64,000 bases of DNA from Gordonia humi (GTDB taxonomy: Bacteria; Actinomycetota; Actinomycetes; Mycobacteriales; Mycobacteriaceae), in NCBI RefSeq assembly GCF_014197435.1, contig NZ_JACIFP010000001.1, forward strand, positions 4,792,908 through 4,856,907, written 5' to 3'. The notes beneath the pieces were generated by a model. It saw only the letters and a list, made by a program, of their open reading frames with translations. It was not told the origin of the DNA and searched no databases. Made by a program: the position numbers and the translations under genes. Shown here one piece after another: positions 4,525-45,871 of this stretch. Positions within the stretch are counted from its first letter, which is position 1. Each line of letters begins with the position of its first letter.

Positions 4525-4530
4525 CAACGC

Positions 4531-7382: not shown

Positions 7383-7400
7383 CCGCTGAACCGCCCGTCG

Positions 7401-9703: not shown

Positions 9704-10258
9704 ATGACGTCACCCCACGACCAGAATCCGGACGACCGGAACCCGGCCGACCACGCCCCCGAGGACCCGGCGGTGCACGATCAGCCGCCGGGGGCGGATC
9801 CGGCCGGCGAGGCGCCGACCGCTCCGCTGGAATCGACGCAGCCCGATCCCGGCCAGGCCGCCCCCGCTCCGCAGCCGACACCGGTCGCCGCCGCACCCCG
9901 CCCCGGGCCCACCGTGGTCCCGGTCCAGAAGCGCTGGCTGGTCGCGGGATCGGCGGTCGGCGCGCTCGCCGTGGTCGGCCTCGCGTTCGGCGCGGGATTC
10001 CTCGTCGGCGACAACACCGGCGACGACGGCCACGGCGACCGCGGCCGAATGTCCGCCGAATACGGTCAGATGCCCGGGTTCGGCTCCGGATCGGGCGGCG
10101 GCCGCCGACTGTTCGTCATCCCGGATCTGCCCGGACAGGAGCAGGGCCAGGGGCAGCAGGACAGGTCGGGCCAGGACGGATCGGGTCAGGACGGGACAGG
10201 CCAGGACGGATCGGGACAACAGCAGACGCCCGCCCCCTCGTCGAGCATTCCGGGCTGA
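9704..10258 (+). CDS. Single-pass membrane protein with low-complexity tails
   Basis: The protein is 184 residues. The N-terminal 80 residues are Pro/Asp/Ala-rich and presumably cytoplasmic. One membrane helix follows at about 85-106 (WLVAGSAVGALAVVGLAFGA), then an exported Gly/Gln/Asp-rich tail with a GQDGS/T repeat. No enzymatic motif is visible. The start is the ATG preceded by GGGAGG; the frame is open further upstream but has no ribosome site there. It is convergent with a lipoprotein gene 12 bp away. Function unknown. Confidence 0.72.
   Translation: MTSPHDQNPDDRNPADHAPEDPAVHDQPPGADPAGEAPTAPLESTQPDPGQAAPAPQPTPVAAAPRPGPTVVPVQKRWLVAGSAVGALAVVGLAFGAGFLVGDNTGDDGHGDRGRMSAEYGQMPGFGSGSGGGRRLFVIPDLPGQEQGQGQQDRSGQDGSGQDGTGQDGSGQQQTPAPSSSIPG
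10168..10212 (+). repeat. Three tandem 15-bp repeats (GQDGS/T)
   Basis: Three consecutive 15-bp units, close to GGGCCAGGACGGATC, encode GQDGS, GQDGT and GQDGS in the exported tail of the membrane protein. The period is five codons, so copy-number change would preserve the frame. Confidence 0.8.
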
Positions 10259-10270
10259 CCCGGGCGGCCG

Positions 10271-10702
10271 CTACTTCGGCTTCTTATCGACCCGCTCCAC
10301 CTGATAGAACAGCGACGATCCGCCGCCCGACGCATCGGCCGACACCCCCACGCTGACCCACAGGGTGTCATCGCCGACGTCCTTCCACAGCGTCACCGTC
10401 TGGTTGGCCGGATCACCCGCGCGGCTGGACTCCTCGTACCCCGCGTCCTCGAGCTTCTTCGTCGCCGCGGTGAGCGGGTTGCCCTCGGCGGCATTCGCCT
10501 GAATGCTGAACCGCCACGACTGATCGTCGCCGGACGGACTCAGCACGGCCCCGTCGACGAGCGGAACGTCGTCGACGGGGAATCCCGCGGGCAGCGATTC
10601 GCCGGGTCGATCGGGGGCGTCGTCGCCCCCGCAGGCGGCCAGCACGACGCCACCCAACAGCGCGATCGTGAGAACGATGCAGACGCGAAATAAAGCCTTC
10701 AT
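10271..10702 (-). CDS. Putative lipoprotein
   Basis: The 143-residue protein begins MKALFRVCIVLTIALLGG and carries a lipobox VLAAC, so it should be lipidated and anchored outside the membrane. The mature part is a small alpha/beta-looking domain containing SWRFSIQAN and ending FYQVERVDKKPK. No family was recognised with confidence. A -10 box (TACCGT) 7 nt before the ATG fixes the start and indicates a leaderless mRNA. It lies divergent from the Mrp operon. Confidence 0.8.
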   Translation of the reverse strand: MKALFRVCIVLTIALLGGVVLAACGGDDAPDRPGESLPAGFPVDDVPLVDGAVLSPSGDDQSWRFSIQANAAEGNPLTAATKKLEDAGYEESSRAGDPANQTVTLWKDVGDDTLWVSVGVSADASGGGSSLFYQVERVDKKPK

Positions 10703-10709
10703 GCCCGAA

Positions 10710-10715
10710 ACGGTA
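10710..10715 (-). promoter_or_regulatory. -10 box of leaderless lipoprotein promoter
   Basis: On the minus strand TACCGT (TANNNT) is followed by 7 nt and the lipoprotein ATG, without a Shine-Dalgarno sequence. Confidence 0.5.
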
Positions 10716-10772
10716 GAGTAGGACGCGGCAGGACACCTGTCCGACACCCCGCCCGCCCCTCTATCCGACGGA

Positions 10773-13679: not shown

Positions 13680-14332
13680 CCGTCGACCTCGGCCTGCTCA
13701 TCGTCGCGGGCGCCCTCGCCGCGGCGGGCGCCTACCTGATCATGGAGCGGAGCCTGATCCGCATGCTGTTCGGGCTGATGCTCGTCGGCAACGCCATCAA
13801 TCTGCTGATCATCACGCTCGCCGGTCCTCCCGGTCATCCGCCGATCCGCGGCCGTGAGTCCGACGGCCAGACGGCCGACGCCGATCCGCTCGCGCAGGGC
13901 ATGGTCCTGACCGCGATCGTCATCACGCTGGGCATCGCGGCGTTCGTCCTCGCGCTCTCGTACCGCCTGTTCGTCATCAACCGGCGCAGCCGCGAGACAC
14001 CGCCCGACCTGGAGCCGACGTCCACCGAGAGCCCCCAGGACGACGACCTGCAGGACGACCCGGAAGACGTCAAGATCGCTACCGGATCGCTGCAGGGATT
14101 CGGCGACCGCGACCGCAGCGACGACCCGTTGACCGGTGCCGACACCGTCGCAGGCGACTTGTTCGACGATCACGGCAACCCGTTGACCGCCGAGGAGTTC
14201 GAGGCCGTCCACGCCGGCGTCATCGAGACCGACCTGATGCCCGAGGACGCCGAGCTGATCGCACATCTGGCCGAGACCGACGACGACATGCCCGGAGACA
14301 CCGACATCGACGACGAGGAGGACGATCGATGA
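13676..14332 (+). CDS. mnhC: Mrp/Mnh antiporter subunit C with acidic C-terminal tail
   Basis: Residues 1-103 form a NuoK-like MnhC subunit with three membrane helices (LLIVAGALAAAGAYLIMERS, MLFGLMLVGNAINLLIITLAG, and LTAIVITLGIAAFVLALSYR). The other 115 residues are strongly acidic and probably cytoplasmic, ending in DDEEDDR. The usual MnhC is only about 110-120 residues, so the tail doubles its length. The GTG start overlaps the mnhA stop (GTGA) and its own stop overlaps mnhD (ATGA). Confidence 0.94.
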   Translation: MTVDLGLLIVAGALAAAGAYLIMERSLIRMLFGLMLVGNAINLLIITLAGPPGHPPIRGRESDGQTADADPLAQGMVLTAIVITLGIAAFVLALSYRLFVINRRSRETPPDLEPTSTESPQDDDLQDDPEDVKIATGSLQGFGDRDRSDDPLTGADTVAGDLFDDHGNPLTAEEFEAVHAGVIETDLMPEDAELIAHLAETDDDMPGDTDIDDEEDDR

Positions 14333-15942
14333 TCCCCCAACCGTCGTGGATCACCGTGCTGATCGTGCTGCCCACGCTCGCACCGATGCTCGGCGCGGCA
14401 CTCGCCCTCGTCCGCGGACGCAGCCCGTCGTTCCAACGCGCGATCAGTGTCACCGCGATCAGCGTGGCCCTCACCGCATCGGGCATGATGCTGTACCTGA
14501 CCAGCGTGCACGGCCCGTTCGCGGTGCACATCGGCGGCTGGGGCGCCCGCGACGGCGGCGACGGTCCGCTCGGCATCACCCTGGTCGTCGACCGTCTCGC
14601 CGCATTGATGCTGGTCGTGTCGACGACGGTCCTGCTGTGCGTGGTCGTATACGCCATCGGGCAGGGCATCCGCGACGGCACCACCGAGCAGCCGGTGTCG
14701 ATCTTCCTGCCGACCTACCTGATCCTGACGGCCGGGGTGTGCAACGCCTTCCTGGCCGGCGACCTGTTCAACCTCTACGTGTCCTTCGAGGTGCTGCTCG
14801 CCGCGAGCTTCGTGCTGCTGACGCTCGGCGCGAGTGCCGAACGCGTACGAGCCGGCGCTTCGTACGTCATGGTGTCGATGGTGTCGTCGCTGATCTTCCT
14901 GGCGGGCATCGCCTTCGCCTACGCGGCCACCGGCACCCTGAACCTCGCCGAGATGGCGGTGCGGCTCGACGACGTCCCCGACGGCACCCGCAACGCGCTG
15001 TACGCGGTGCTGCTGGTGGCCTTCGGCATCAAGGCCGCTGTGTTCCCGCTGTCGACATGGCTGCCCGACTCGTATCCGACGGCCCCTGCACCGGTCACCG
15101 CGGTGTTCGCCGGTCTGCTCACCAAGGTCGGCGTGTACGCGATCATCCGGGCGCACTCGCTGCTGTTCCCGGGCGGGACACTCGACACCGTCCTGATGAT
15201 CGCCGGCCTCCTGACCATGCTGGTCGGCATCTTCGGTGCGATCGCGCAGACCGACGTGAAGCGACTCCTCTCGTTCACACTGGTCAGTCACATCGGCTAC
15301 ATGATCTTCGGCATCGCCGTCGGGTCGCTGGAGTCCACCTCGGCCGCCATTTACTACGTGGCGCACCACATCCTGGTGCAGACGACCCTGTTCCTCGTGG
15401 TCGGACTCATCGAACGTCAGGCGGGATCGTCGTCGTTGCGGCGTCTCGGCGGTCTCATCGCGAGTCCACTGCTGGCCGTGCTGTTCCTGATCCCGGCGTT
15501 GAACCTGGGCGGCATCCCGCCGTTCTCCGGGTTCATCGGCAAGGTGGCCCTGCTCCAGGCGGGCGCCGCCGACGGTTCGGTGCTGTCATGGATCCTGGTG
15601 GCAGGCTCGGTCGTCACGAGCCTACTGACGCTGTACGTGATGGCCCGCATCTGGACGAAGGGCTTCTGGCGGGCACGCGCCGACGCCCCCGAGGGCGATA
15701 TGGCCGCCAGCACACCGTCGGCGCTGGTCGAGGAGGGCACCGACGTCCTGCTCGACGAGCGGGAGGACGTCGGCCGCATGCCGGTCGCCATGGTGGTGCC
15801 GACGGCGGTGATGGTCGTCGTCGGACTCGCGTTGACCGTGTGGGCCGGACCGATCTTCGAATTCACCGACAGCGGCGCCCACGGCGTCCTGGATCGGAAC
15901 GTCTACATCGGCACCGTCCTCGGCACGGGAGGTGGCCGGTGA
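14329..15942 (+). CDS. mnhD: Mrp/Mnh antiporter subunit D
   Basis: The 537-residue membrane protein is related to complex I subunits NuoM/NuoN and has about 14 membrane helices. Diagnostic parts are CNAFLAGDLFNLYVSFEVLL, with the conserved acidic residue, KAAVFPLSTWLPDSYPTAP, and GGIPPFSGFIGK. It is the second proton-channel subunit of the Mrp complex. The start overlaps the mnhC stop by four bases, and its stop overlaps the mnhE GTG. Confidence 0.95.
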   Translation: MIPQPSWITVLIVLPTLAPMLGAALALVRGRSPSFQRAISVTAISVALTASGMMLYLTSVHGPFAVHIGGWGARDGGDGPLGITLVVDRLAALMLVVSTTVLLCVVVYAIGQGIRDGTTEQPVSIFLPTYLILTAGVCNAFLAGDLFNLYVSFEVLLAASFVLLTLGASAERVRAGASYVMVSMVSSLIFLAGIAFAYAATGTLNLAEMAVRLDDVPDGTRNALYAVLLVAFGIKAAVFPLSTWLPDSYPTAPAPVTAVFAGLLTKVGVYAIIRAHSLLFPGGTLDTVLMIAGLLTMLVGIFGAIAQTDVKRLLSFTLVSHIGYMIFGIAVGSLESTSAAIYYVAHHILVQTTLFLVVGLIERQAGSSSLRRLGGLIASPLLAVLFLIPALNLGGIPPFSGFIGKVALLQAGAADGSVLSWILVAGSVVTSLLTLYVMARIWTKGFWRARADAPEGDMAASTPSALVEEGTDVLLDEREDVGRMPVAMVVPTAVMVVVGLALTVWAGPIFEFTDSGAHGVLDRNVYIGTVLGTGGGR

Positions 15943-16748
15943 GCAACACCCCGTACCCGGAGCGACCGCGGGCGAAGTCCGTCGGCAAGAACCCGGTGGC
16001 TCGATTCTTCGGCACGCTGTGGCGGCTGGCCGTCCTGTGGTTCGCCTGGCCGACCACGAATCTGATCGTATGGCTGTCACAGAACCTCAAGTTCCCCGTC
16101 TGGGCGGGCGGCGATCTCCGCGAGGTCGCCATGCGCCTGTGGGGCGTGGCGTGGCTGACGTTCGTGTGGGTGCTTCTGTGGGGCGAGGTCACCTGGACCA
16201 ACATCATCGTCGGCATCGTGTTCGCGGTACTCGTCATGGTGCTGCTGCCGCTGCCTCGGGTGCCCATAGAGGGCCGGGTCCACCCGCTCGCGGCGGCGAA
16301 GCTCCTGCTCACCCTGATCGGCAGCTTCATGGTGTCGTCGGCGCAGGTCGCCTGGGCCGCGGTGAAACCGGGTCCGCCACCTCTGGGCGCAGTGGTCCGG
16401 GTGCACCTGGCGATCAAGTCCGACCTCGTCCTCACTCTCGCCATCGACTACATCAACCTGGTGCCCGGCACCATGGTCGTCGAGATCGACCACCTGCGGC
16501 GCATGCTGTACATCCACATCTTCGACGTCCGCAAGCAGTCGCAGATCGACTCCTTCTACCGGACGATGGCCTATGTGGAACGCCAGTTCATCAAGGCCTT
16601 CGAGCGCGACTCCGAGTGGCATCCGAGCCCGTTCCACGGCGTCGACGACGACTACCACCACGTTCCGTTCAGCGACCGCCGGCGCGTCGCCGACGAGGAG
16701 CGCCACGCCTCGCAGGGTCGGCTGCGGCGCCGGTTGAGGGGCGAGTAG
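15939..16748 (+). CDS. mnhE: Mrp/Mnh antiporter subunit E, extended
   Basis: The 269-residue protein contains the MnhE core (two or three membrane helices, then VKPGPPPLGAVVRVHLAIKS and LVPGTMVVEID), about residues 60-195. It has a longer N-terminus with an extra hydrophobic segment and a charged C-terminal tail; typical MnhE is about 160 residues. The GTG start overlaps the mnhD stop. The frame is open far upstream, but the overlap position is the natural start in a coupled operon. Confidence 0.92.
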   Translation: MSNTPYPERPRAKSVGKNPVARFFGTLWRLAVLWFAWPTTNLIVWLSQNLKFPVWAGGDLREVAMRLWGVAWLTFVWVLLWGEVTWTNIIVGIVFAVLVMVLLPLPRVPIEGRVHPLAAAKLLLTLIGSFMVSSAQVAWAAVKPGPPPLGAVVRVHLAIKSDLVLTLAIDYINLVPGTMVVEIDHLRRMLYIHIFDVRKQSQIDSFYRTMAYVERQFIKAFERDSEWHPSPFHGVDDDYHHVPFSDRRRVADEERHASQGRLRRRLRGE

Positions 16749-17009
16749 ATGACCTACGTCTGGAGCATCGCGGCAGCCATGCTGCTGATCGCCGTCGTGC
16801 TGACCACCTACCGCTCCATACGCGGCCCGAGCACCCTGGACCGCCTGGTCGGGATCGACGCGATCGTCGCCATCATGATCTGCGGCCTGGCGATCTGGGT
16901 GGCGGCCAGCGGTGACACGACGATCGCCGCCGCCATCGTCGTGCTGAGCCTGGTCAGTTTCATCGGATCGGTGGCGGTGGCCCGCTTCCGCGTGCGAGAC
17001 GACGAGTGA
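16749..17009 (+). CDS. mnhF: Mrp/Mnh antiporter subunit F
   Basis: The 86-residue protein has three membrane helices and the family hallmark STLDRLVGIDAIVAIM, in which the Asp residues are conserved. Its ATG directly abuts the mnhE stop codon. Confidence 0.94.
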   Translation: MTYVWSIAAAMLLIAVVLTTYRSIRGPSTLDRLVGIDAIVAIMICGLAIWVAASGDTTIAAAIVVLSLVSFIGSVAVARFRVRDDE

Positions 17010-17022
17010 ACGGAGCCGCCCC

Positions 17023-17376
17023 ATGATCGCAGACGTCTTCTCCGCCGTGTTCATCCTCGCCGGCTCGTTACTCGCCCTGACCGCGGCCGTCGGCATCGTC
17101 CGCTTCCCGGACACGCTCAGCCGCATGCACGCGGCCACCAAACCGCAGACCTTCGGCATGATCCTGGTGCTCATCGGGGCGCTGATCCAGCTCGACGGCC
17201 ACGTCGACTCCGGCATGCTGGTCCTCACCGGGCTCTTCACGCTCATCACCGCGCCCGTCATCGCTCAACGCGTGGGGCGCCTCGTCTACCGCGAACAGCG
17301 CATCGACGAACAGCTGCTCGACGAGAGCCAACTGCGGTCCCGGGTGAGCGACGACTCCCGGCAAGCCGATCGATAG
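17023..17376 (+). CDS. mnhG: Mrp/Mnh antiporter subunit G
   Basis: The 117-residue protein has three helices, and the conserved cytoplasmic loop VRFPDTLSRMHAATKPQT identifies MnhG. It is the last gene of the antiporter operon, 13 bp behind mnhF, with CGGAG as ribosome site. Only 5 bp separate its stop from the stop of the convergent TetR gene. Confidence 0.94.
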   Translation: MIADVFSAVFILAGSLLALTAAVGIVRFPDTLSRMHAATKPQTFGMILVLIGALIQLDGHVDSGMLVLTGLFTLITAPVIAQRVGRLVYREQRIDEQLLDESQLRSRVSDDSRQADR

Positions 17377-17381
17377 GCTGG

Positions 17382-17951
17382 TCAGAGTTCCGAGCTCGCC
17401 TCTCGCAGCGTGTCCAGAGCGGCGACGGCGTAGGGCCCGAAGCCGGTGTCGTCGTCCGCCTCGATCCACGCGGCGTACCCCTGCTTGAACGCGAGAACAC
17501 CCACCTCGGCGGCGAGCTGCGCGACCGGCACCGCGACCCCGCGCGCAGCGAGTGCATCGGTCATCGCGACGGACAGGCCGACTCGTTTGAGCGCGTCCCG
17601 CTCCTGAAGCTCGGCACTGGAGGCGATCGCCGCTCTCAACTGCGGACCGATCGCGCGGTTCACGGGACCGAACGCCTCACTCGCCCGCTCCAGTCCGGCG
17701 GCCACCGCGTCCAGCGGCGAGACGTCCGGCGGCGCGTCTGCGATGCCCTCGGCCAGCCGACCGCTCAGGGCCTCCTGCCCGGCGGAGAGGATCTCGCGCT
17801 TATCGGAGAAGTGTCGGAAGAGCGTGCTCTTGGTGACCCCGGCTCGCGCGGCGATCTCGGTCACCGTGGTCGCGTCGTACCCCTGATCGGCGAACAGTTC
17901 GACGGCGGCGACGACGAGCCGCTCACGTGCTCCCGGTTCCCAACGTGCCAT
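17382..17951 (-). CDS. TetR family transcriptional regulator
   Basis: The 189-residue protein has a classic TetR DNA-binding domain: residues 9-55 with AVELFADQGYDATTVTEIAA, RAGVTKSTLFRHFSDKREIL. The C-terminal half is a generic ligand pocket. It is divergent from an NmrA-like SDR gene, and a 32-bp inverted repeat lies between them, so local repression of both genes is likely. A -10 box 6 nt before the ATG indicates a leaderless mRNA. Confidence 0.92.
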   Translation of the reverse strand: MARWEPGARERLVVAAVELFADQGYDATTVTEIAARAGVTKSTLFRHFSDKREILSAGQEALSGRLAEGIADAPPDVSPLDAVAAGLERASEAFGPVNRAIGPQLRAAIASSAELQERDALKRVGLSVAMTDALAARGVAVPVAQLAAEVGVLAFKQGYAAWIEADDDTGFGPYAVAALDTLREASSEL

Positions 17952-17957
17952 GCACCC

Positions 17958-17963
17958 ACCCTA
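17958..17963 (-). promoter_or_regulatory. -10 box of leaderless TetR promoter
   Basis: On the minus strand TAGGGT ends 6 nt before the TetR ATG. The palindromic operator begins 13 bp upstream of this box and so would cover the -35 region. Confidence 0.5.
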
Positions 17964-17976
17964 TCCGATGGGACTT

Positions 17977-18008
17977 TTGTCTCGTCACCCTGTACAGTGA
18001 CGGGACAA
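17977..18008. promoter_or_regulatory. Operator between divergent TetR and SDR genes
   Basis: Inverted repeat with 12-bp arms TTGTCTCGTCAC and GTGACGGGACAA, one mismatch, around an 8-bp centre CCTGTACA. It lies 26 bp from both start codons and contains the possible -10 box TACAGT for the SDR gene. It is the likely site of the adjacent TetR protein. Confidence 0.78.
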
Positions 18009-18034
18009 GAGTCTCATGACACTAGGAGGGTTCC

Positions 18035-18916
18035 ATGAAGGTCTTCGTCACCGGTGCGACCGGCAACATCGGAGCGGCAGTCGTCACCGAGCTGCTCGCG
18101 CACTCCCATGAGGTGATCGGCCTGGCACGTTCGGAGACCTCGGCCGCCAAGCTCGAAGCCGCCGGAGCCTCGGCGGTACGGGGCGGGCTGGCCGACCTCG
18201 ACGTGATCCGCAGCGCGGCGGCCGACTCCGACGGCGTCATCCATCTCGCCTTCAGCAACGACTTCAGCGCCCCCGAGGCGCTCGCCGCGGGCATCGCGGA
18301 GGAGACCGCCGCGATCACCGCCGTCGGTGAGGCTCTGATCGGCAGCGGGAGACCGTTCGTCGTCTGTTCCGGAACACCGTCGATCCCGGGGCGCGCCTCG
18401 ATCGAGTCCGATCCCCTGCCCCTCGACGGCCCGGTCGGCGGCCGCGCGGTCGCCGTCGACCGCACCCTCGCACTGAAGGACCGGGGCGTGCGCAGCTCCG
18501 CTGTGCGCCTGCCCCGAACCGTCCACCGGAACGGCGAGGGCGGCTTCGCCGGCATCCTCACGCAGATCGCGCGCTCCAGCGGCCTGTCCGGCTATCCGGG
18601 CGACGGATCCCAACGATGGCCGGCCGTCCACTCCGCCGATGCCGCCGCGCTGTTCCGCTTGGCACTGGAGGCAGCACCGGCCGGGACGTCGTGGCACGCC
18701 GTCGCCGACGAGGGCGACCCGGTGAGGGCGATCGCCGAGATCATCGGTCGCCGCCTCGGAGTACCGGTGGGGCCCGCACCGGCGGAGACCTACGGGGCGA
18801 TCGGCGCGGTCTTCGCGCTGGACCAACCCTCCTCCAGCGCTCACACGCGCGAGATCCTGGGCTGGGAGCCGACCGGCCCGTCGCTGCTCGAGGACCTGGA
18901 ACTCATTCGGCCCTGA
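18035..18916 (+). CDS. NAD(P)-dependent epimerase/dehydratase-like SDR
   Basis: The 293-residue extended or atypical SDR has the N-terminal nucleotide-binding motif TGATGNIGAAVV. A catalytic Tyr-x3-Lys is not evident at the usual place, so it may be an NmrA-like or ligand-sensing reductase. The start follows a strong AGGAGG site. It is divergent from a TetR gene across a palindrome, the typical layout of an inducible detoxification gene. Substrate unknown. Confidence 0.85.
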   Translation: MKVFVTGATGNIGAAVVTELLAHSHEVIGLARSETSAAKLEAAGASAVRGGLADLDVIRSAAADSDGVIHLAFSNDFSAPEALAAGIAEETAAITAVGEALIGSGRPFVVCSGTPSIPGRASIESDPLPLDGPVGGRAVAVDRTLALKDRGVRSSAVRLPRTVHRNGEGGFAGILTQIARSSGLSGYPGDGSQRWPAVHSADAAALFRLALEAAPAGTSWHAVADEGDPVRAIAEIIGRRLGVPVGPAPAETYGAIGAVFALDQPSSSAHTREILGWEPTGPSLLEDLELIRP

Positions 18917-33460: not shown

Positions 33461-34681
33461 TCAGCGCTCTGTGCGCTTGCGGAGCTCGGCCTTGGCCAGC
33501 GAGTTCTTGTGAACCTCGTCGGGACCGTCGGCGAAGCGCAGCGTACGGATGCCCGCGTACGCCTCGGCGAGCGGGAAGTCCTGCGACAGACCGCCGGCGC
33601 CGTGCACTTGGATCGCCTTGTCGAGGATCCATTGGACGGTACGCGGGGTGGCGATCTTGATCGCCTGGATCTCGCTGTGCGCCCCCTTGTTTCCGACGGT
33701 GTCCATCAGCCATGCGGTCTTGAGGACCAGAAGTCGCAGCTGCTCGATGCGCACGCGCGATTCGGCGATCCAGTCGCGGATCACACCCTGCTCGGCGAGC
33801 GGGCGACCGAACGCGACACGAGCGGATGCACGGTCGCACATCAACTCGACGGCGCGCTCGGCGAGGCCGATCGATCGCATGCAGTGGTGGATGCGCCCCG
33901 GTCCCAGACGGGCCTGCGCGATGGCGAAACCGGCGCCCTCGTCGGCGATGACGTTCGCGACCGGCACGCGGACGTCGGTGAACTTCAGTTCGGCATGTCC
34001 GCCGTGGCTGTGGTCGTCGTAGCCGAAGACCTCCATACCGCGGATCACCTCGACGCCCGGGGTGTCCCGCGGGACGAGGATCTGCGACTGCTGCCGGTGA
34101 CGCGGCGCCTCCGGATCCGTCTTGCCCATCACGATGAGGATCTTCGCGTTCGGATTCATCGCACCGGTGATCCACCATTTGCGACCGTTGACGACGTACT
34201 CGTCGCCGTCGCGGCGGATCGACAGCTCGATGTTGGTCGCATCCGAGCTCGCGACGTCCGGTTCGGTCATCGCGAATGCCGAGCGGATCTCGCCGTCGAG
34301 CAGCGGGCGCAGCCACTGCTCCTGCTGGGCCGCGGTGCCGAACTCGTTGAGGACCTCCATGTTTCCGGTGTCCGGCGCGGCGCAGTTGAAGACGGCGGGT
34401 GCCAGCTGCGGGCTGCGGCCGCTGAGCTCGGCGAGCGGAGCGTACTGCAGGTTGGTCAGCCCCGCACCGTTCTCGCCGGGCAGGAAGAAGTTCCAGTAGC
34501 CGCGCGAGCGCGCCTCGCCGCGCAGTTCGGCCAGCACCGGCACGCTGTCCCAGGCCCACTTGTCGTCGAGCTGGGCGAGCTGGTCGTGAAAGACCTGCTC
34601 ATTCGGGTAGACGTGGCTGTCCATGAAGGCGCTGACGCCCTCGATCAGCTCGCGGGTCTCGTCGTCGAATGCGAATTCCAT
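33461..34681 (-). CDS. Acyl-CoA dehydrogenase, ACAD10/11-like (LvaC-like)
   Basis: The 406-residue FAD enzyme resembles the dehydrogenase half of ACAD10/11. Features: [72 protein letters not shown], and the C-terminal [14 protein letters not shown]. It starts one base after the stop of an APH-type kinase gene, the partner that is fused to it in animals. Together they may convert phosphorylated 4-hydroxyacyl-CoA; alternatively it is an ordinary FadE. It is the last gene of a four-gene operon. Confidence 0.9.
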
Positions 34682-34682
34682 G

Positions 34683-35699
34683 TCAGTTCTCCTTCAGTGC
34701 GGCGAGCCCCGCGTCGAGCAGTCCGTACACGCCCTCGCCGATCTGCGAGAAGCCGTCGCCGACCGTCTGGCCGTTGACGAAGCGGTAGTGGATTCCTTCG
34801 ACGATGCCCGCCAGTTTGAAACAGCTCAGGGCGATGTAGAAGCCGAGGTCCGACAGATCACGGTCGCTGCCCGCGGCGTACCGGGCGATCACCTCGTCCT
34901 CGCTCAGGTAACCGGGGGCCTCCGTCGCATCGGCGACGGTGTCCGGCGAGAACTTCGCCATGCGGCCGTAGACCAGCATCAGCGCGAGGTCCGTGAGCGG
35001 GTCGCCGATCGTCGACAGCTCCCAGTCGACGACGCCGACGACGCGGTCGTCGCCGTCGACGAGGACGTTGTCGAGCCGGTAGTCGCCGTGCACGATCCCG
35101 GGCGCGGTGTCGGCCAGAACCCGCTGCGACAGTTCGGCGTACAGCGCCTCCATCGTCGGGAGCTCACGGGTGTGCGCGGCCTCGAACTGCTTGTGCCACC
35201 GCTCGACCTGACGCCCGAGGAAGCCCTCGGGACGGCCGAAGTCGGCCAGCCCGACCTCCGCCGGGTTCACGCGGTGCAGTTCGGCGAGGACGTCGACGAA
35301 GTTCTCCGACATCGCCCTGGTCCGCTCGGCGCCGACGGCGGCGAGGTCGGCCTTGGAGCGGTAGGTGGCACCGTCGACGCACTCCATGACGTAGAACGGG
35401 GCGCCGAGCACGTCCGGATCGTCACACAGCGCGTACATCGCGGGCACGGGCACGGGAGTCGGCGCGAGCGCCGACATCATGCGGTGTTCGCGGACCATGT
35501 CGTGGGCGGTCGCCAGCAGGTGCCCCACCGGCGGCCGACGCAGAATCCACACCGCCGTCCCGTCGGTGATCCGGTACGTCAGGTTCGACTTTCCACCGGC
35601 GATCAACGTCGCGCTCAGCTGCGAGCCCGCGCCGTCGACGTGCTCGGGAAGCCAGCGGCCGAGGACATCCAGGTCGAGTCCGGGATGCGGCTGCGTCAT
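34683..35699 (-). CDS. APH-type phosphotransferase (ACAD10/11 N-domain / LvaA-like kinase)
   Basis: The 338-residue protein-kinase-like fold enzyme belongs to the aminoglycoside phosphotransferase group. Landmarks: [12 protein letters not shown] (nucleotide loop), the catalytic [15 protein letters not shown] (Asp, Asn), and [18 protein letters not shown]. This subgroup is found fused to, or beside, acyl-CoA dehydrogenases, and in known cases phosphorylates 4-hydroxyacyl-CoA rather than antibiotics. The ATG overlaps the stop of the upstream MaoC gene (ATGA). The long open frame further upstream is antisense noise over MaoC. Confidence 0.9.
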
Positions 35700-36151
35700 C
35701 AGAACGCCAGCACCGACACGGTCTCGGCGACGCATGCGGGCTTGTCGCCGCCCTCGCGTTCGACGGTGACGCGGTTGATCACCTGGTACCCGGCGGCCGT
35801 CTCCGTGACCGACACGATCTCGACGCCCGCGCGCACGCGCGAGCCGACCGGGACCGTCGACGGGAAGCGGACCTTGTTGCTGCCGTAGTTGATGCCCATG
35901 GTGTTGCCCTCCACCTTGTACACCTGCCACGACAGCATCGGGATCAGCGACAGCGTCAGATAGCCGTGCGCGATGGTGGCGCCGAACGGTCCGGATGCCG
36001 CGCGCTCGGGATCGACGTGGATCCACTGGTGGTCGCCGGTCGCGTCGGCGAACTTGTCGATGCGGGCCTGGTCGATCTCGACCCAGTCGGAGTAGCCGAG
36101 GTGCGTGCCCTCGGCGGCTTTGAGCTCATCGGCGCCGTTGAGGATTCTCAT
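35699..36151 (-). CDS. htdZ: MaoC-like (R)-specific enoyl-CoA hydratase
   Basis: This single hot-dog-fold hydratase has 150 residues. The hydratase-2 motif is complete: FADATGDHQWIHVDPERA, with catalytic Asp and His, followed by PFGATIAHGYLTLSLIPML. The sequence closely resembles M. tuberculosis HtdZ (Rv0130) as recalled. It hydrates trans-2-enoyl-CoA to (R)-3-hydroxyacyl-CoA. Its ATG overlaps the stop of the SDR gene upstream, and its stop overlaps the kinase start, so it is the second gene of the coupled operon. Confidence 0.93.
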   Translation of the reverse strand: MRILNGADELKAAEGTHLGYSDWVEIDQARIDKFADATGDHQWIHVDPERAASGPFGATIAHGYLTLSLIPMLSWQVYKVEGNTMGINYGSNKVRFPSTVPVGSRVRAGVEIVSVTETAAGYQVINRVTVEREGGDKPACVAETVSVLAF

Positions 36152-36903
36152 GCCTTCGGCCCGCCCGCCACGTAGAGCACCTGGCCGGAGACGAAGCCCG
36201 CACCTTCGCTGGCGTAGAAGCTGACGGCGTGCGCGATGTCGGCGGGCTCGCCGACGCGCTGGACCGGGATCTCCTTGGCGGCCGCGGCCTTGAAGTCGTC
36301 GAAGCCGACGCCCATGCGCTCGGCGGTCGCGGCGGTCATCTCCGTGGCGATGAATCCCGGGGCGATCGCGTTGGCGGTGACGCCGAAGCGGCCGAGCTCA
36401 AGGGCGAGAGTCTTGGTGAAGCCCTGCATCCCGGCCTTGGCGGCCGAGTAGTTGGCCTGGCCGCGGTTGCCCAGCGCCGACGTCGACGACAGGTTAACGA
36501 TGCGGCCCCAGCCCTCCTTGGTCTGATACGCCTGCACCTCGCGGGACATGAGGAACGCACCGCGCAGGTGCACGGCCATGACCGAGTCCCAGTCGGAGAC
36601 GGTCATTTTGAAGATCAGGTTGTCGCGGATGATGCCTGCGTTGTTCACCAGGATGGTCGGCGCGCCGAGTTCGGCGGCCACCCGGCTCACCGCGGCTTCG
36701 ACGGCGACCTCGTCGGAGACGTCCGCACCGACGGCCAGCGCCTTGCCGCCGTCGGCCACGATGCCGTCGACGACCTTCTGGCAGGCGGCCTCGTCGAGGT
36801 CGAGCACCGCGACGGCGTGGCCGTCGGACGCGAGACGACGGGCGACTTCGGCCCCGATGCCGCGGGCTGCTCCGGTGACGATGGCGGTTCGCTGGGTACT
36901 CAT
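36148..36903 (-). CDS. SDR family 3-oxoacyl reductase/dehydrogenase (FabG-like)
   Basis: The 251-residue classical SDR has [15 protein letters not shown] for cofactor binding, NNAGI, and the catalytic Ser-Tyr-Lys set in NLSSTSALGNRGQANYSAAKAG, with the C-terminal YVAGGPKA. It would interconvert 3-oxo- and 3-hydroxyacyl-CoA, or reduce a 4-oxoacyl-CoA as LvaD does. AGGAG lies 6 nt before the ATG. It is the first gene of the operon; a perfect 14-bp palindrome lies about 57 bp upstream. Confidence 0.92.
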   Translation of the reverse strand: MSTQRTAIVTGAARGIGAEVARRLASDGHAVAVLDLDEAACQKVVDGIVADGGKALAVGADVSDEVAVEAAVSRVAAELGAPTILVNNAGIIRDNLIFKMTVSDWDSVMAVHLRGAFLMSREVQAYQTKEGWGRIVNLSSTSALGNRGQANYSAAKAGMQGFTKTLALELGRFGVTANAIAPGFIATEMTAATAERMGVGFDDFKAAAAKEIPVQRVGEPADIAHAVSFYASEGAGFVSGQVLYVAGGPKA

Positions 36904-36959: not shown

Positions 36960-36973
36960 TAAGCGATCGCTTA
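36960..36973. promoter_or_regulatory. Perfect 14-bp palindrome upstream of SDR-MaoC-kinase-ACAD operon
   Basis: TAAGCGATCGCTTA is a perfect inverted repeat in an AT-rich patch 57 bp upstream of the operon's first start codon. Its form resembles TetR-family operators that control fatty-acid catabolism in actinobacteria. No regulator gene is adjacent, so the binder would be encoded elsewhere. Confidence 0.6.
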
Positions 36974-37155
36974 TTTTTCCGGTTCCCACTATGCCGGAGG
37001 GTGTGACCGTCGTCAACCGTCGGCGAGGGAATCGCCCGGCGAGCCGTCGCCGCGCGCCGGTATCGCTCATGTTCCCGTCGATCGTGTCGCGGTACAACAG
37101 TGCCCCGGCGAGTCGATACTCGTCGGGGCACCGTCTGCGGTACGGCCGGACCGTT

Positions 37156-37932
37156 CTACTTCGGAGGCATCCGGATGCCGCCGTCGACGCGGATCACCTC
37201 GGCGTTCATGTACGAGTTGGTGATCAGCTCCTCGACCATCGACGCCAGCTCGTCGGGCACGCCGAGACGCTTCGGGAACAGAACGCTCTCACCGAGCTTG
37301 GCCTTGAACGCTTCGGCGTCGGGACCCTCGCCGTAGATGGGGGTGTTGATCAGACCCGGCGCGATGCAGTTGACGCGCACGCCGATCGCCGACAGGTCAC
37401 GGGCGACGGGCAGGGTCATGCCGACGACGCCGCCCTTCGACGACGAGTACGCGGCCTGACCGATCTGACCGTCGAACGCCGCGACGCTGGCGAGGTTGAC
37501 GATCGCACCGCGCTCGCCGTCGCCGGACGGCTCGTTGCGGCTCATCGCGGTGGCGGCGAGGCGAACGCAGTCGAAGGTGCCGATCAGGTTGATCGCGATG
37601 ACCTTCTTGTACAGGTCCAGGTTGTGAGCGGAGGCGAACTCCCCGTCGCGTCCGACGGTGCGCTGCGCCCAGCCGATACCGGCCGAGTTGACGACGGCCT
37701 TCAGCGGGCCCAGCTCGGTGGCCTTGTTGACCGCGGCCTCGATCTGCGCGGTGTCGGTCACGTCGACGGTGACGAAGACGCCGTCGATCTCCTTGGCCAG
37801 GGCCTCGCCGTCTTCCGCCTTCAGATCGGCGATGACGACTTTGGCGCCGCGGGCGGCCAGACGACGGGCCGACGCCGCGCCGATGCCCGACGCGCCACCG
37901 GTGACGATTGCACTTGCTCCATTGAGTTCCAT
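37156..37932 (-). CDS. SDR family 3-hydroxyacyl-CoA dehydrogenase (type II/HSD10-like)
   Basis: The 258-residue SDR has the cofactor motif [15 protein letters not shown], followed by [11 protein letters not shown], where the Asp after the second strand implies NAD(H). The pattern around [23 protein letters not shown] contains the catalytic Ser, Tyr and Lys. It is most like the mitochondrial type II 3-hydroxyacyl-CoA dehydrogenase. A -10 box TAAGCT 6 nt before the ATG implies an independent leaderless transcript. It is separated from the upstream SDR operon by about 250 bp. Confidence 0.9.
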
Positions 37933-42136: not shown

Positions 42137-43444
42137 TCAGCCTTCGACGATGGCGGTGACGCCTTGGCCGCCCGCGGCGCAGATGGAGACGAGGGCGCGA
42201 CCGCCGCCGTTCTCCTTGATCTGCTTGGCCGCCTGGGCGATGATGCGGCCGCCGGTCGCGGCGAACGGGTGCCCCGCGGCCAGCGACGAGCCGTTGACGT
42301 TCAGCTTGCCGCGGTCGATCGCGCCGAGCGCCTTGTCGAGGCCGAGGCGCTCGCGGCAGTACTCGTCCGACTCCCACGCGGCCAGGGTCGCGAGGACGAC
42401 GGAGGCGAACGCCTCGTGGATCTCGTAGAAGTCGAAGTCCTGCAGGGTCAGGCCGTTGCGCTCGAGCAGCCGCGGCACGGCGTAGGTCGGCGCCATGAGC
42501 AGTCCGTCCGGTCCGTTGACGTAGTCGACGGCGGCGGTCTCGGTGTCGCGCAGGTAGGCCAGGACCGGGAGCTTGTGCTCGGCGGCCCAGTCGTCGCTGG
42601 CGAGCAGCACCGTGGACGCACCGTCGGTGAGCGGGGTCGAGTTGCCCGCGGTCATGGTGGCGTCGCCCAGCCCCACGCCGAAGACCGGCTTGAGGGTGGC
42701 GAGCTTGTCCACCGAGGAGTTCGGACGCAGGTTCTCGTCGCGCGTCAGACCCATGAACGGGGTGATCAGGTCGTCGAAGAACCCGCGGTCGTACGCGGCG
42801 CCCATCTTCTGGTGGCTGGCGGCGGCGAGAGCGTCCTGGTCCTCGCGTTTGACGCCGAACTCCTTGGCGGTGATGGCGGCGTGCTCACCCATCGACATGC
42901 CGGTGCGCGGCTCGCCGTTGCGCGGGATCTCGATGCCGAGCTTGGTGGCCAGGCCGAGCGCCGCCTTGATGCGGTCGGCGGTGCTCTTGGCGCGGTTCAC
43001 CTCGAGCATCTGACGGCGCATCTGTTCGGACACGCCGATCGGAGCGTCCGACGTGGTGTCGACGCCGCCGCCGACGGCGACGTCGTAGCGACCCGAGGCG
43101 ATGCCGTCGCCGACGGCCGTGATGGCCTGCAGGCCCGTGCCGCACGCCTGCTGGAGGTCGAAGGCCGGGGTGTACGGCGAGAGACCGGAGCCCAGGACCG
43201 ACTCGCGGATCAGATTGAAGTCGCGCGAGTGCTTGAGGACGGCGCCGCCGGCCACCATGCCGAGCTGCTCGCCCTGCAGGTTGAAGCGGCTGATCAGCCC
43301 CTGAAGGGCCGCGGTGAACATCTCCTGGTTGCTCGCGGTCGCATACGCACGATCCTGCCGCGCGAACGGGATACGGTTGCCACCGAGGATGGCGACGGGG
43401 CGAAGCTGGCGGGTTTCGGGCTTGCGGGGCGTGTACGAGGCCAC
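42137..43444 (-). CDS. fadA2: Acetyl-CoA acetyltransferase / thiolase, FadA2-like
   Basis: The 435-residue thiolase catalyses reversible Claisen condensation or thiolysis of 3-oxoacyl-CoA. The nucleophilic Cys is in DLQQACGTGLQA. The NEAF-equivalent is YEIHEAFASV, the GHP motif is SLAAGHPFAATG, and the second active-site Cys is in ALVSICAAGGQG. The GTG at 43444 is chosen because AGGAG lies 7 nt upstream. It is divergent from fabG4-htdX, as recalled for M. tuberculosis Rv0243/Rv0242c, and shares a promoter region with a CTTAC-N6-GTAAG operator. Confidence 0.94.
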   Translation of the reverse strand: MASYTPRKPETRQLRPVAILGGNRIPFARQDRAYATASNQEMFTAALQGLISRFNLQGEQLGMVAGGAVLKHSRDFNLIRESVLGSGLSPYTPAFDLQQACGTGLQAITAVGDGIASGRYDVAVGGGVDTTSDAPIGVSEQMRRQMLEVNRAKSTADRIKAALGLATKLGIEIPRNGEPRTGMSMGEHAAITAKEFGVKREDQDALAAASHQKMGAAYDRGFFDDLITPFMGLTRDENLRPNSSVDKLATLKPVFGVGLGDATMTAGNSTPLTDGASTVLLASDDWAAEHKLPVLAYLRDTETAAVDYVNGPDGLLMAPTYAVPRLLERNGLTLQDFDFYEIHEAFASVVLATLAAWESDEYCRERLGLDKALGAIDRGKLNVNGSSLAAGHPFAATGGRIIAQAAKQIKENGGGRALVSICAAGGQGVTAIVEG

Positions 43445-43470
43445 GTGCTCTCCTGTGATCGGACCGACTG

Positions 43471-43499
43471 TTGTCAACATTCTTACTCCCGAGTAAGTT
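43471..43499 (+). promoter_or_regulatory. fabG4 promoter containing CTTAC-N6-GTAAG operator
   Basis: TTGTCA (43471-43476) and TAAGTT (43494-43499) are 17 bp apart, a near-ideal vegetative promoter directed to fabG4. The palindrome CTTAC-TCCCGA-GTAAG (43482-43497) fills the spacer and overlaps the -10 box. A bound regulator would therefore block it, and it also covers the start of the divergent fadA2 transcript. The same palindrome occurs upstream of the TetR gene near 46.67 kb. Confidence 0.78.
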
Positions 43500-43628
43500 G
43501 TTTGTCGACCTCAGTGATCTGCGTTTAGCGTCACAACGCCACCTGGTGCGGGTGACCGCTCGACGCGCATATGGTCACCACCGAAGGTAACGACTCGAAC
43601 AGTCACCGACCTACCAAAGGAGTCAGTC

Positions 43629-44990
43629 GTGGCAGGCAACACCGACCTCTACTCAGCGTTCGTGAACTCGGGCCCCGGCGGTTTCATCGCCAGCCGCGTC
43701 GGCCTCCCCCAGCCGCCTAAGCTGCGCCGCTATTCGGCCACGCAGCCGCCACTCGGCGGCCCGGTGCTGCTCGGCGGCACCGGACGCCTGGTGGAGCCGA
43801 TCCGCGAGATCCTCACCGCGGGCGACGACTACAGCCTGGTGGAGAACAACACCGGTGGCCGCAGCGCCGACAAGTTGGGCGCGGCCGTCTTCGACGCGAC
43901 CGGCATCAGCAACGCCGCCGAGTTGGAGCAGCTGTTCGAGTTCTTCACCCCGATCATGCGTTCGACGGGCAACTCGGCGCGCTTCGTCGTCCTGGGCACC
44001 ACGCCCGAGCTGACCGCGAGCCCGGACGAGCAGGTCGCCCAGCGCGCCCTCGAGGGCTTCACCCGCTCACTCGGCAAGGAGCTCCGCAACGGCGCCACCG
44101 CGCAGCTCGTCTACGTCTCACCGAAGGCCACGACCGGCCTGTCGGGCGTCGAGTCGACACTGCGGTTCCTGCTGTCGGGCAAGTCGGCGTACGTCGACGC
44201 CCAGGTGATCCGCATCGGCGACGCCGACGGCGCCACCGTCGAGAACTGGGACAAGCCCCTCGCGGGCAAGGTCGCCCTGGTGACCGGCGCCGCCCGCGGC
44301 ATCGGCGCCACCATCGCCGAGGTCCTCGCGCGCGACGGCGCCCACGTCATCGCCGCCGACATCCCCGCCGCGGGCGAGGCCCTGTCGGAGACCGCGAACA
44401 AGGTCGGCGGCACCGCACTGCCCCTCGACGTGACCGCCGAGGACGCCGGCGCCACGATCGCCGAGCACGTCCTCGAGCGCCACGGCGGTCTGGACATCAT
44501 CGTGAACAACGCGGGCATCACCCGCGACAAGCTGCTCGCCAATATGGACGCCGGCCGCTGGAACTCGGTGATCGGCGTCAACCTGATCGCTCCGCAGACG
44601 CTGGTCAACGAGCTGATCTCCCGCAAGGCCCTCAACTCCGGCGGCGCCGTCGTGGACGTCTCGTCGATCGCGGGCATCGCGGGCAACCGCGGCCAGACCA
44701 ACTACGGCGCGTCGAAGGCCGGCGTCATCGGTCTGGTGAACGCGTACGCTCCGATCCTGGCCGAGAAGGGCATCACCATCAACGCGGTGGCGCCGGGCTT
44801 CATCGAGACCGCGATGACCGCAGCCATTCCGCTCGCCACCCGCCAGGCCGGACGCCTGATGAACTCGATGCAGCAGGGCGGTCAGACGATCGACGTCGCC
44901 GAGACCGTGGCGTACTTCGCCAGCCCCGCCAGCAACGCGGTGACCGGCAACGTGGTCCGTGTCTGCGGTCAGAGCCTCCTGGGCGCCTGA
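43629..44990 (+). CDS. fabG4: High-molecular-weight 3-oxoacyl reductase FabG4
   Basis: At 453 residues it is almost twice the size of ordinary FabG. Residues 1-200 are a flavodoxin-like N-terminal domain without its own activity. The C-terminal SDR domain has [30 protein letters not shown] and the catalytic set [22 protein letters not shown]. The mycobacterial enzyme is NADH-dependent and acts on long 3-oxoacyl-CoA. The GTG start follows AAAGGAG. The stop overlaps the htdX start (TGATG). Confidence 0.95.
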
Positions 44991-45871
44991 TGAGCACCGT
45001 GACGTTGACGTCGGTTCCCGGACCGGCGCAGATCTACCCGAAGGCCGTCGGCGCGATGTTGCCGGTGATCGGCAAGCCCGCTCGGGTGGCGGCCGACGCC
45101 GTCGTTCCCGACACGGTGTACCGGCTGGAGAATCTGACGATCGACCGCGCACAGCTGCAGGCGTACTGCCGTACCACGGGGCTGCCGTTCGGTGCGACCG
45201 TCCCGGTCACGTACCTGTTCGTGCTGTCGTTCCCGCTGGCCATGACGGTGATGGTCGACCCGAAGTTCCCGCTGGGCGCCATCGGTTCGGTGCACATCGA
45301 GAACACGATCGAGCGGTTCCGCGCGATCGGCGTCGACGAGCCGCTGACCGTGCAGACACACGCGGAGAACCTCCGCGAGCACCGCAAGGGCATGCTCGTC
45401 GACATGGTCAGCGAGTTCTTCGTCGGCTCGGAACGTGTCGCGGCGCAGACCAGCACGTTCCTGAAGCAGCAGCGCACCAGCCTGTCCGGCGGGGAACGAG
45501 GCCCGGCTCCGAAGGAGATCGCTCCCCCGCCGCCCGACCGCGTCGTCTCGGTGGACCTCGGGCTGATCCGCCAGTACGCGGAGACCTCCGGCGACCGGAA
45601 TCCGATTCACATGGCCGATCTGTCGGCCAAGGCGTTCGGCTTCTCCAAGGCCATCGCCCACGGCATGTGGTCGGCGGCGACCGCGCTGGCCAACATCGAG
45701 GGCTCACTGCCCGGCGCGGTGACCTACTCGGTCCGCTTCGGCAAGCCGATCCTGTTGCCCGCCAAGGTGAACGCGTACACGAAACCGGTCGACGGCGGCT
45801 ACGACGTGTCGCTGCTCAACCGTCGCAAGGGCTACCCGCACGTGACGGGGACCGTCCGCCCGCGCGGCTGA
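44990..45871 (+). CDS. htdX: MaoC-like 3-hydroxyacyl-thioester dehydratase HtdX
   Basis: The 293-residue double hot-dog protein has a degenerate N-terminal hot-dog. The C-terminal one carries the hydratase-2 motif YAETSGDRNPIHMADLSAKAFGF and AIAHGMWSAATAL. It would dehydrate or hydrate long-chain 3-hydroxyacyl thioesters beside FabG4. With FadA2 these enzymes supply thiolase, reductase and dehydratase activities for chain modification. Its start overlaps the fabG4 stop. A very strong terminator follows 10 bp after the stop. Confidence 0.93.
   Translation: MSTVTLTSVPGPAQIYPKAVGAMLPVIGKPARVAADAVVPDTVYRLENLTIDRAQLQAYCRTTGLPFGATVPVTYLFVLSFPLAMTVMVDPKFPLGAIGSVHIENTIERFRAIGVDEPLTVQTHAENLREHRKGMLVDMVSEFFVGSERVAAQTSTFLKQQRTSLSGGERGPAPKEIAPPPPDRVVSVDLGLIRQYAETSGDRNPIHMADLSAKAFGFSKAIAHGMWSAATALANIEGSLPGAVTYSVRFGKPILLPAKVNAYTKPVDGGYDVSLLNRRKGYPHVTGTVRPRG

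What the first reader, a model, noticed from the sequence alone, without database searches (positions are those of the whole stretch)
33461..36903. Coupled SDR-MaoC-APH kinase-ACAD operon: candidate 4-hydroxyacyl-CoA degradation system
Four genes on the minus strand overlap by one or four bases or lie 1 bp apart, so they form one translational unit. An APH-type kinase next to an ACAD10/11-like dehydrogenase is the split version of the animal ACAD10/11 fusion. It also resembles Pseudomonas LvaA/LvaC, which turn 4-hydroxyacyl-CoA into 3-hydroxyacyl-CoA through a phosphorylated intermediate. Here an (R)-specific MaoC hydratase and an SDR are part of the same unit. They could hydrate the enoyl-CoA intermediate and oxidise the product, or make the 4-hydroxyacyl-CoA from a 4-oxo acid as LvaD does. 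The combination with HtdZ seems distinctive. Annotation pipelines would label the kinase an aminoglycoside phosphotransferase, which is probably misleading.
Basis: partly seen in the sequence, partly recalled or inferred. Interest (0 to 1): 0.75.

Follow-up and report, generated by a model that had tools for sequence, protein, structure and literature searches.

The report
Bacterial 4-hydroxy fatty acid breakdown operon
Four tightly packed genes in a Gordonia-like bacterium look like a bacterial version of the animal ACAD10/ACAD11 enzymes, which remove a stubborn hydroxyl group from 4-hydroxy fatty acids, and they appear to belong to a wider, commonly controlled gene set that may degrade gamma-lactones.

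Summary
In detail: SDR, MaoC, APH kinase and ACAD genes abut on the minus strand. The ACAD has the residues by which ACAD11 holds the 4-phosphate (R626, H634, R637) and its catalytic Asp753; 0 of 7 conventional ACADs do. The kinase keeps ACAD11's catalytic residues. The gene order recurs across actinobacteria; in the genus 13 of 15 genomes with the ACAD orthologue, and 0 of the other 44, have the kinase orthologue. New here: (1) a palindrome, TAAGCGATCGCTTA, 56 bp before the first gene; the motif precedes related clusters, and its three copies in this genome precede cluster homologues, so the operon looks like part of a dispersed TetR regulon. (2) A fuller Tsukamurella cluster adds thiolase, SDRs, a phosphotriesterase-family (lactonase-like) gene, CoA ligase and an HAD. 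(3) Such HADs share the D-x-G-G-V motif of ACAD10's HAD, and HAD-APH fusions exist. The cluster resembles a disassembled ACAD10. No chemistry was assayed. The core chemistry is known (LvaA/LvaC, ACAD10/11); arrangement and regulon are a new variant.

The parts
36988..37016 (-). sigma-70-like promoter (TTGACG, 17 nt, CATAGT), putative
   Evidence: consensus scan, 9 of 12 matches, 1 found against 0.3 expected; weak evidence
36960..36973 (.). operator-like palindrome TAAGCGATCGCTTA, 56 bp before the SDR start
   Evidence: only occurrence in the window; 3 in the genome; in 147 related loci 42 of 43 sites lie within 150 bp upstream of a cluster gene, control patterns 1, 0, 1, 0
36148..36903 (-). 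SDR (FabG-like), proposed (R)-3-hydroxyacyl-CoA dehydrogenase, probably NAD type
   Evidence: Pfam and NCBIfam; [20 protein letters not shown] present, Asp at the end of the second strand (cofactor reading recalled)
35699..36151 (-). MaoC, HtdZ/Rv0130-like, proposed (R)-specific enoyl-CoA hydratase
   Evidence: PF01575; Rv0130 structure 2c2i, E 1.2e-50, 58% identity
34683..35699 (-). APH-fold kinase, proposed 4-hydroxyacyl-CoA kinase
   Evidence: PF01636; ACAD11 kinase part E 1.9e-48; D220, N225, R176 and the alphaC Arg-Glu pair conserved
33461..34681 (-). ACAD10/11-type acyl-CoA dehydrogenase, proposed 4-phosphoacyl-CoA phosphate-eliminating enzyme
   Evidence: ACAD11 E 1.8e-138; R626, R631, H634, C635, M636, R637, D753 all conserved

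Best explanation
The operon is a 4-hydroxyacyl-CoA entry module for beta-oxidation. The APH-fold kinase phosphorylates the 4-hydroxyl of a 4-hydroxyacyl-CoA (inferred from homology and residues). The ACAD11-like enzyme, with redox-active FAD but no net oxidation, eliminates the phosphate to give a 2-enoyl-CoA (inferred: same residues as those shown by mutation to be needed in mouse ACAD10/11). The HtdZ-like MaoC hydrates it to the (R)-3-hydroxyacyl-CoA, and the FabG-like SDR oxidises that to the 3-ketoacyl-CoA for thiolysis (inferred). A TetR-family repressor acts at TAAGCGATCGCTTA until an inducer, perhaps a lactone or an acyl-CoA, appears (inferred from motif conservation; the best candidate gene is at 2.16 Mb of the same contig). 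In this genome the regulon lies in three places. In Tsukamurella, Nocardioides, Cryobacterium and others more of it is in one cluster, which in Tsukamurella has a phosphotriesterase-family gene and a CoA ligase gene, suggesting gamma-lactones and 4-hydroxy or 4-oxo acids as natural substrates.
For: The residue set R626/H634/R637/D753 is complete in the window ACAD and in the five other ACAD11-like copies of this genome; 0 of 7 conventional ACADs have it. Changing R626, H634 or R637 in ACAD10/11 made the phospho-intermediate pile up (PMC12440821, section 7 read). Kinase positions D220, N225 and R176 kept. Four-gene run in three samples. Genus co-inheritance 13 of 15 against 0 of 44 (Fisher 2.6e-11, not corrected for shared descent). 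Motif: 42 of 43 sites upstream of cluster genes; in the 80 named loci, fetched after the motif was drawn, 22 of 23 (counted). All three sites of this genome precede cluster homologues: this operon, TetR/ACADx with divergent SDRb (L142), SDRa (L144). Fuller Tsukamurella cluster. Database fusions of related kinases with HAD, SDR, CoA ligase and ACAD11.
Against: No activity was measured. 48 of 80 named loci, many of them Streptomyces, have only the APH-ACAD11 pair, and 12 of 80 have the kinase without an ACAD11 label next to it (some are at contig ends). 15 of 40 order loci have no APH label of 40% identity or more in the fetched stretch (one, L092, has one at 37-38%). One genus member, G175, kept FabG and ACAD but lost MaoC and kinase (L112). 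The motif also marks other TetR-ACAD pairs in species without the operon, and those TetRs (53-58%) are no less similar to the Tsukamurella TetR than this genome's candidate (50%), so neither the specificity of the motif nor the identity of the repressor is settled. Lactonase, CoA ligase and HAD are not beside the operon here; three PTE-family genes and one 31%-identical HAD lie elsewhere.
Confidence: 0.74

Rival explanations
1. Levulinate-type system: the SDR reduces a 4-oxoacyl-CoA to the 4-hydroxyacyl-CoA as LvaD does, and kinase plus ACAD do the rest; MaoC is incidental.
For: Same kinase-ACAD core as LvaA/LvaC; LvaC shares ACAD10/11-specific residues (passages of PMC12440821). An SDR heads the operon.
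Against: No LvaB-like small gene and no ligase gene in the operon: the four genes abut. Several fuller clusters keep FabG-MaoC as a pair and add two other SDRs, which would fit the 4-oxo/4-hydroxy step. LvaD's sequence was not compared.
Confidence: 0.15
2. The module acts on a hydroxyl at another position or on a bulky (terpenoid or steroid-like) acyl-CoA rather than on aliphatic 4-hydroxy acids.
For: Several clusters continue with an ACAD_B/ACAD_C pair whose best models are pimeloyl-CoA dehydrogenase large subunit and IpdE2, both well below cut-off; such pairs are known with large substrates (recalled). This genome has six ACAD11-like copies, so their substrates probably differ.
Against: The window's operon lacks ACAD_B/C. 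In the ACAD11 model the conserved residues hold a phosphate at C4 (PMC12440821, section 7).
Confidence: 0.2
3. An antibiotic or other small-molecule kinase that happens to lie in a fatty-acid operon.
For: Databases call relatives phosphotransferase or aminoglycoside phosphotransferase, and the best solved structure, 9o56, is labelled Aminoglycoside phosphotransferase by its depositors (no paper on it was seen).
Against: Next best are 3dxp, labelled putative acyl-CoA dehydrogenase (2.8e-58), and ACAD11 (1.9e-48); two other APH-like entries come at 2.2e-11 and 2.7e-10, and capreomycin, viomycin, macrolide and hygromycin kinases at 1.4e-5 or worse. NCBIfam drug-kinase models reach 47 bits at most against cut-offs of 205 or more. 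Conserved linkage to ACAD11.
Confidence: 0.02

Closest known systems
Animal ACAD11 and ACAD10 (PMC12440821: abstract, passages, sections 7 and 10; PMC11342911: abstract, passages, section 8, section 10 part 1)
   Same: Kinase plus atypical ACAD with the same phosphate-binding residues and catalytic Asp; related bacterial clusters also hold an HAD with ACAD10's incomplete DxD motif.
   Different: Separate genes, in one operon with MaoC and FabG, behind a TetR-type operator; in this genome no HAD beside them.
Pseudomonas putida lvaABCDE levulinate operon (Rand et al. 2017: not held; seen only as cited in the two ACAD papers)
   Same: Separate kinase (LvaA) and ACAD (LvaC) genes acting on 4-hydroxyacyl-CoA; an SDR (LvaD) belongs to the operon (recalled).
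   Different: No LvaB or LvaE here; has MaoC; origin of the substrate probably differs. Sequences were not compared.
Rhodococcus erythropolis qsd gamma-lactone operon (passages of PMC6262395, PMC6476934, PMC3689677)
   Same: Lactonase plus CoA ligase under a TetR repressor; the Tsukamurella cluster has a phosphotriesterase-family gene directly followed by a CoA ligase gene.
   Different: The passages seen name qsdR, qsdA and qsdC, no kinase or ACAD11; the open-chain product is said to go through a beta- or omega-oxidation step. The window has neither lactonase nor ligase. Identity of the Tsukamurella genes to QsdA/QsdC was not measured.
HtdZ (Rv0130) and FabG families
   Same: Family, motifs and probable reactions of the MaoC and SDR.
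   Different: Coupled to a kinase-ACAD pair; the SDR scores below the FabG equivalog cut-off although it just reaches a broader FabG subfamily cut-off.

Membership tests
ACAD10/11-type (4-phosphoacyl-CoA) dehydrogenase | R626, H634 (HCMR), R637 and catalytic D753, mouse ACAD11 numbering | tested here: met
   controls 0 of 7
ACAD10/11-type (4-phosphoacyl-CoA) dehydrogenase | phosphate elimination without an electron acceptor | not testable with these tools
   needs an enzyme assay
ACAD11-type 4-hydroxyacyl-CoA kinase | D220, N225, R176 and the arginine next to the alphaC glutamate | tested here: met
   The paper's number for the last one (R86) did not land on an arginine in my numbering of the printed chain; I scored the Arg-Glu pair instead
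ACAD11-type 4-hydroxyacyl-CoA kinase | falls with ACAD10/11 kinases and not with other APHs | tested here: inconclusive
   two of three control APHs are set apart (100/98); the forks that join window and ACAD10/11 kinases have 91/87 and 86/63; the third control (2323k) joins an ACAD-linked paralogue on long branches
ACAD10 | HAD domain with only the first Asp of DxD | tested here: not met
   no HAD in the window's operon. In relatives: 10 of 10 HADs extracted have D-x-G-G-V
Lva operon | lvaB and lvaE together with lvaA, lvaC, lvaD | tested here: not met
   no room for lvaB between the abutting genes and no ligase in the operon
Lva operon | orthology to LvaA/LvaC by tree | not tested
HtdZ (R)-specific enoyl-CoA hydratase | MaoC domain and close similarity to Rv0130, with its GDHQWIHVDPERA stretch | tested here: met
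   activity not tested
FabG 3-oxoacyl-ACP reductase (TIGR01830 equivalog) | score over the curated cut-off 297.75 bits | tested here: not met
   247.9 bits; it equals the cut-off (222) of the broader subfamily model NF009466
qsd gamma-lactone operon | phosphotriesterase-like lactonase with CoA ligase under a TetR repressor | tested here: not met
   absent from the window's operon; PTE followed by LIG in Tsukamurella

The most novel reading that the evidence does not exclude
Actinobacteria carry a disassembled, operon-encoded ACAD10 (HAD, kinase and ACAD as separate genes, sometimes HAD-kinase fused) embedded in a TetR regulon for gamma-lactone and 4-hydroxy/4-oxo acid catabolism. The HAD is a non-phosphatase brake on the kinase, and animal ACAD10 is the fused descendant of such a set. 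The module supplies the missing step between lactone opening plus CoA ligation (as in the rhodococcal qsd pathway) and beta-oxidation.
Probability: 0.4. Interest if true: 0.75.

Novelty: new variant of a known kind. Interest (0 to 1): 0.62.

Why it matters
Genes filed as aminoglycoside phosphotransferase and acyl-CoA dehydrogenase in many actinobacteria would be re-read as a 4-hydroxy acid pathway. It offers a genetically simple system in which to test how the puzzling HAD domain of ACAD10 restrains its kinase, suggests an unassigned step of gamma-lactone (and so of quorum-quenching) catabolism, and predicts an operator and a regulator that can be tested directly.

Tried and rejected
Drug-kinase reading: rejected on scores and linkage, although the best solved structure bears an aminoglycoside label. 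Levulinate operon proper: rejected as membership, kept as a mechanistic analogue. FabG equivalog: below cut-off. Putting LvaA/LvaC in the trees: not possible; the 2017 paper is not held. The first control alignment of conventional ACADs had two rows in the wrong frame; redone. The first operator script stopped on a naming error; redone. Number of sites is weak evidence: with the looser pattern this genome has 3 against 4 for the control, with the stricter one 3 against 0. By my hand count, the 15 genomes with the ACAD orthologue hold 30 sites (control 7) and the other 44 hold 40 (control 51). The argument rests on where the sites lie. Two of the 43 sites (L142, L144) come from stretches fetched because of the site, and the motif was drawn from the window and the loci; the 80 named loci are the independent set. 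Terminator scan: none found. Literature: in the rows listed by searches (several lists were cut at 10 or 20 rows) I saw no title or abstract start that joins ACAD10/11-type genes with actinobacterial MaoC or lactone clusters; subscription journals are mostly not held, and Barbey et al. 2012 on gamma-caprolactone was not seen.
Full report
Anatomy. On the minus strand lie SDR 36,903-36,148, MaoC 36,151-35,699, APH kinase 35,699-34,683 and ACAD 34,681-33,461; neighbours overlap by 4 and by 1 base, then lie 1 base apart. Downstream are two genes that look by eye like an ABC ATPase and a large membrane protein; upstream is a separate SDR at 37,156-37,932. The genus is very probably Gordonia: among the nearest named kinases are several from Gordonia, and the contig lengths of genus members G149, G170 and G155 equal those given for proteins of G. 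phthalatica, G. spumicola and G. shandongensis.

The dehydrogenase. The ACAD matches ACAD11 (8v3u, 465 bits; 2wbi, 459) and 4hr3, labelled putative acyl-CoA dehydrogenase (436), far better than any other solved ACAD (155 bits or less). I numbered the printed ACAD11 chains so that their two engineered mutants fall on D220 and D753. The window then has R626, R631, H634, C635, M636, R637 and D753. R626, H634 and R637 hold the 4-phosphate in the published model and are needed for activity (PMC12440821, section 7). All 71 bacterial rows keep R626, R637 and D753; one (L125) has Tyr at H634. Of seven conventional ACADs none has the set. The window copy and the five other ACAD11-like copies of this genome (51, 412, 860, 892 and 1,813 kb) all have it. 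Four of those five have an APH gene next to them or one gene away; the 860-kb copy has none in the 16 kb read.

The kinase. Best solved structures are 9o56 (8.8e-64, labelled Aminoglycoside phosphotransferase), 3dxp (2.8e-58, labelled putative acyl-CoA dehydrogenase) and ACAD11 (1.9e-48); two other APH-like entries follow at about 1e-11 to 1e-10, and named antibiotic kinases at 1.4e-5 or worse. Positions D220, N225 and R176 are D, N and R, with the alphaC Arg-Glu pair. In the tree it groups with genus, Tsukamurella and Rhodococcus rows, then with other actinobacterial kinases, and more deeply, with 91/87 and 86/63 support, with ACAD10/11 kinases and 3dxp. The ACAD tree puts window and mouse ACAD11 in one supported set apart from four conventional ACADs; some branches there are long.

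MaoC and SDR. MaoC is 58% identical to Rv0130/HtdZ. The SDR has the glycine motif, NNAG, LSS and YSAAK, scores below the FabG equivalog cut-off but at the cut-off of a broader FabG subfamily, and ends its second strand in Asp, which in this family usually means NAD (recalled). Such an SDR next to an (R)-hydratase fits oxidation of (R)-3-hydroxyacyl-CoA.

Conservation. In a draw of 121 genomes of the order, 77 have an ACAD match at E 1e-150 or better. The run FabG-MaoC-APH-ACAD11 occurs in 10 of 40, 9 of 20 and 7 of 80; the APH-ACAD11 pair in 24, 11 and 68 (with identity limits per label). Named holders of the four-gene run: Tsukamurella pseudospumae, an Actinophytocola MAG, Cryobacterium suzukii, Prauserella flavalba, Amycolatopsis dendrobii, A. 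roodepoortensis and A. suaedae. 48 of 80 have the pair alone. On an R. opacus plasmid HAD-FabG-MaoC-APH occurs without ACAD11 behind it. In the genus, 15 of 59 genomes have the ACAD orthologue (77% identity or more) and 13 have the kinase orthologue (66% or more); all 13 are among the 15 and in each the two genes lie under 70 bp apart. The exceptions are G175, where FabG and ACAD remain about 70 bp apart with MaoC and kinase gone (L112), and G126 (L119). Fisher 2.6e-11 ignores shared descent.

Wider cluster. On a Tsukamurella tyrosinosolvens plasmid the order is ACADx and TetR, then divergently thiolase, SDRa, SDRb, quinone-oxidoreductase-like, HAD, FabG, MaoC, APH, ACAD11, ACAD_B, ACAD_C, phosphotriesterase family, CoA ligase. 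The phosphotriesterase-family protein is closest to 4if2 and then to SsoPox-type entries; relatives such as SisLac and SacPox are described as lactonases (abstract starts in the listing); this protein itself is untested.

Regulon. TAAGCGATCGCTTA at 36,960-36,973 sits 56 bp before the SDR and just after a promoter-like pair. In 147 related loci (2.15 Mb) TAAGCRNNYGCTTA occurs 43 times, in 33 loci; 42 sites are within 150 bp upstream of a cluster gene of 40% identity or more, while four control patterns occur 1, 0, 1 and 0 times. The one other site lies 133 bp before a ligase of 39% identity. The remaining 114 loci have no exact site. In the 80 named loci, fetched after the motif was drawn, 22 of 23 sites are so placed. 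This genome has three sites: before this operon; between TetR (50%, open frame) with ACADx (75%) and SDRb (59%) at 2.162 Mb; and before SDRa (84%) at 0.328 Mb. Of 32 site loci checked (29 from the genus, 3 from this genome), 31 have a homologue of that TetR or of a cluster gene beside the site. In genomes without the operon the neighbours are usually a TetR homologue and a different ACAD. So the motif is that of a TetR subfamily tied to acyl-CoA genes; within this genome it links three scattered pieces. Which TetR binds here is not shown.

HAD and ACAD10. The Tsukamurella HAD as annotated best fits TIGR02247, epoxide-hydrolase N-terminal-like phosphatase (74 bits, below its cut-off of 125). 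10 of 10 HADs extracted read D-[YWF]-G-G-V at motif I, lacking the second Asp; in Tsukamurella the motif lies just upstream of the annotated start. HADs of the 80 named loci were not examined for it. ACAD10's HAD likewise has only one Asp of DxD, shows negligible phosphatase activity and restrains its kinase (PMC11342911, section 8 and part 1 of section 10). A joined HAD-kinase-ACAD query, scored on residues 1-560, found 87 proteins, among them four HAD-APH fusions of 575 aa aligned over 98% of that part (one named, from an Actinomycetota MAG) and seven HAD-APH-ACAD proteins aligned over 81-99%, five of them named ACAD10-like animal proteins. Of 12 HAD-bearing proteins examined, 10 show D-x-G-G-V in the first 140 residues; P0154 and P0182 do not. 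Fusions of such kinases with SDRb, SDRa, CoA ligase and ACAD11 also occur; single-contig cases may be assembly or frame errors. An HAD lies in the APH run in 4 of 40, 0 of 20 and 6 of 80 loci, and not here; this genome has one distant HAD with D-F-G-G-V elsewhere.

Against known systems. The core chemistry is that of LvaA/LvaC and ACAD10/11. The rhodococcal qsd pathway opens gamma-lactones and ligates CoA (passages of PMC6262395 and PMC6476934); what follows is described as a beta- or omega-oxidation step (passage of PMC3689677). A 4-hydroxyacyl-CoA needs the kind of step this module offers. That connection, and the substrate, are inference.

Verdict. The thing is a new variant of a known kind; the regulon, the HAD link and the lactone-cluster context are what a specialist would not expect.

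Noticed in passing
G000 at 51, 412, 860, 892, 1813 kb (L023-L027): Five further ACAD11-type dehydrogenases with the phosphate-binding residues, four of them with an APH gene next door or one gene away: one genome with six such enzymes, substrates unknown.
   Followed up: partly
L112 (G175) 3001-5032: Natural loss of MaoC and kinase between FabG and ACAD, about 70 bp left between them; no kinase match elsewhere in that genome at E 1e-70.
   Followed up: partly
window 42137-45871: Thiolase, then divergently what looks by eye like a two-domain FabG4-like SDR and a MaoC gene, resembling the mycobacterial fadA2-fabG4-htdX set (names recalled).
   Followed up: no
L127 (Tsukamurella tyrosinosolvens plasmid) 3129-18045: Most of a possible lactone/4-hydroxy acid pathway on a 55-kb plasmid, so it may move between strains.
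   Followed up: partly
P0121, P0123, P0124, P0126, P0129, P0131: Database proteins fusing this kinase type to an SDR or a CoA ligase.
   Followed up: partly
L230, L231, L236, L238-L240, L244, L245: Genus members without the operon have the same motif between a TetR homologue (53-58%) and a different ACAD gene: perhaps a sister regulon.
   Followed up: no
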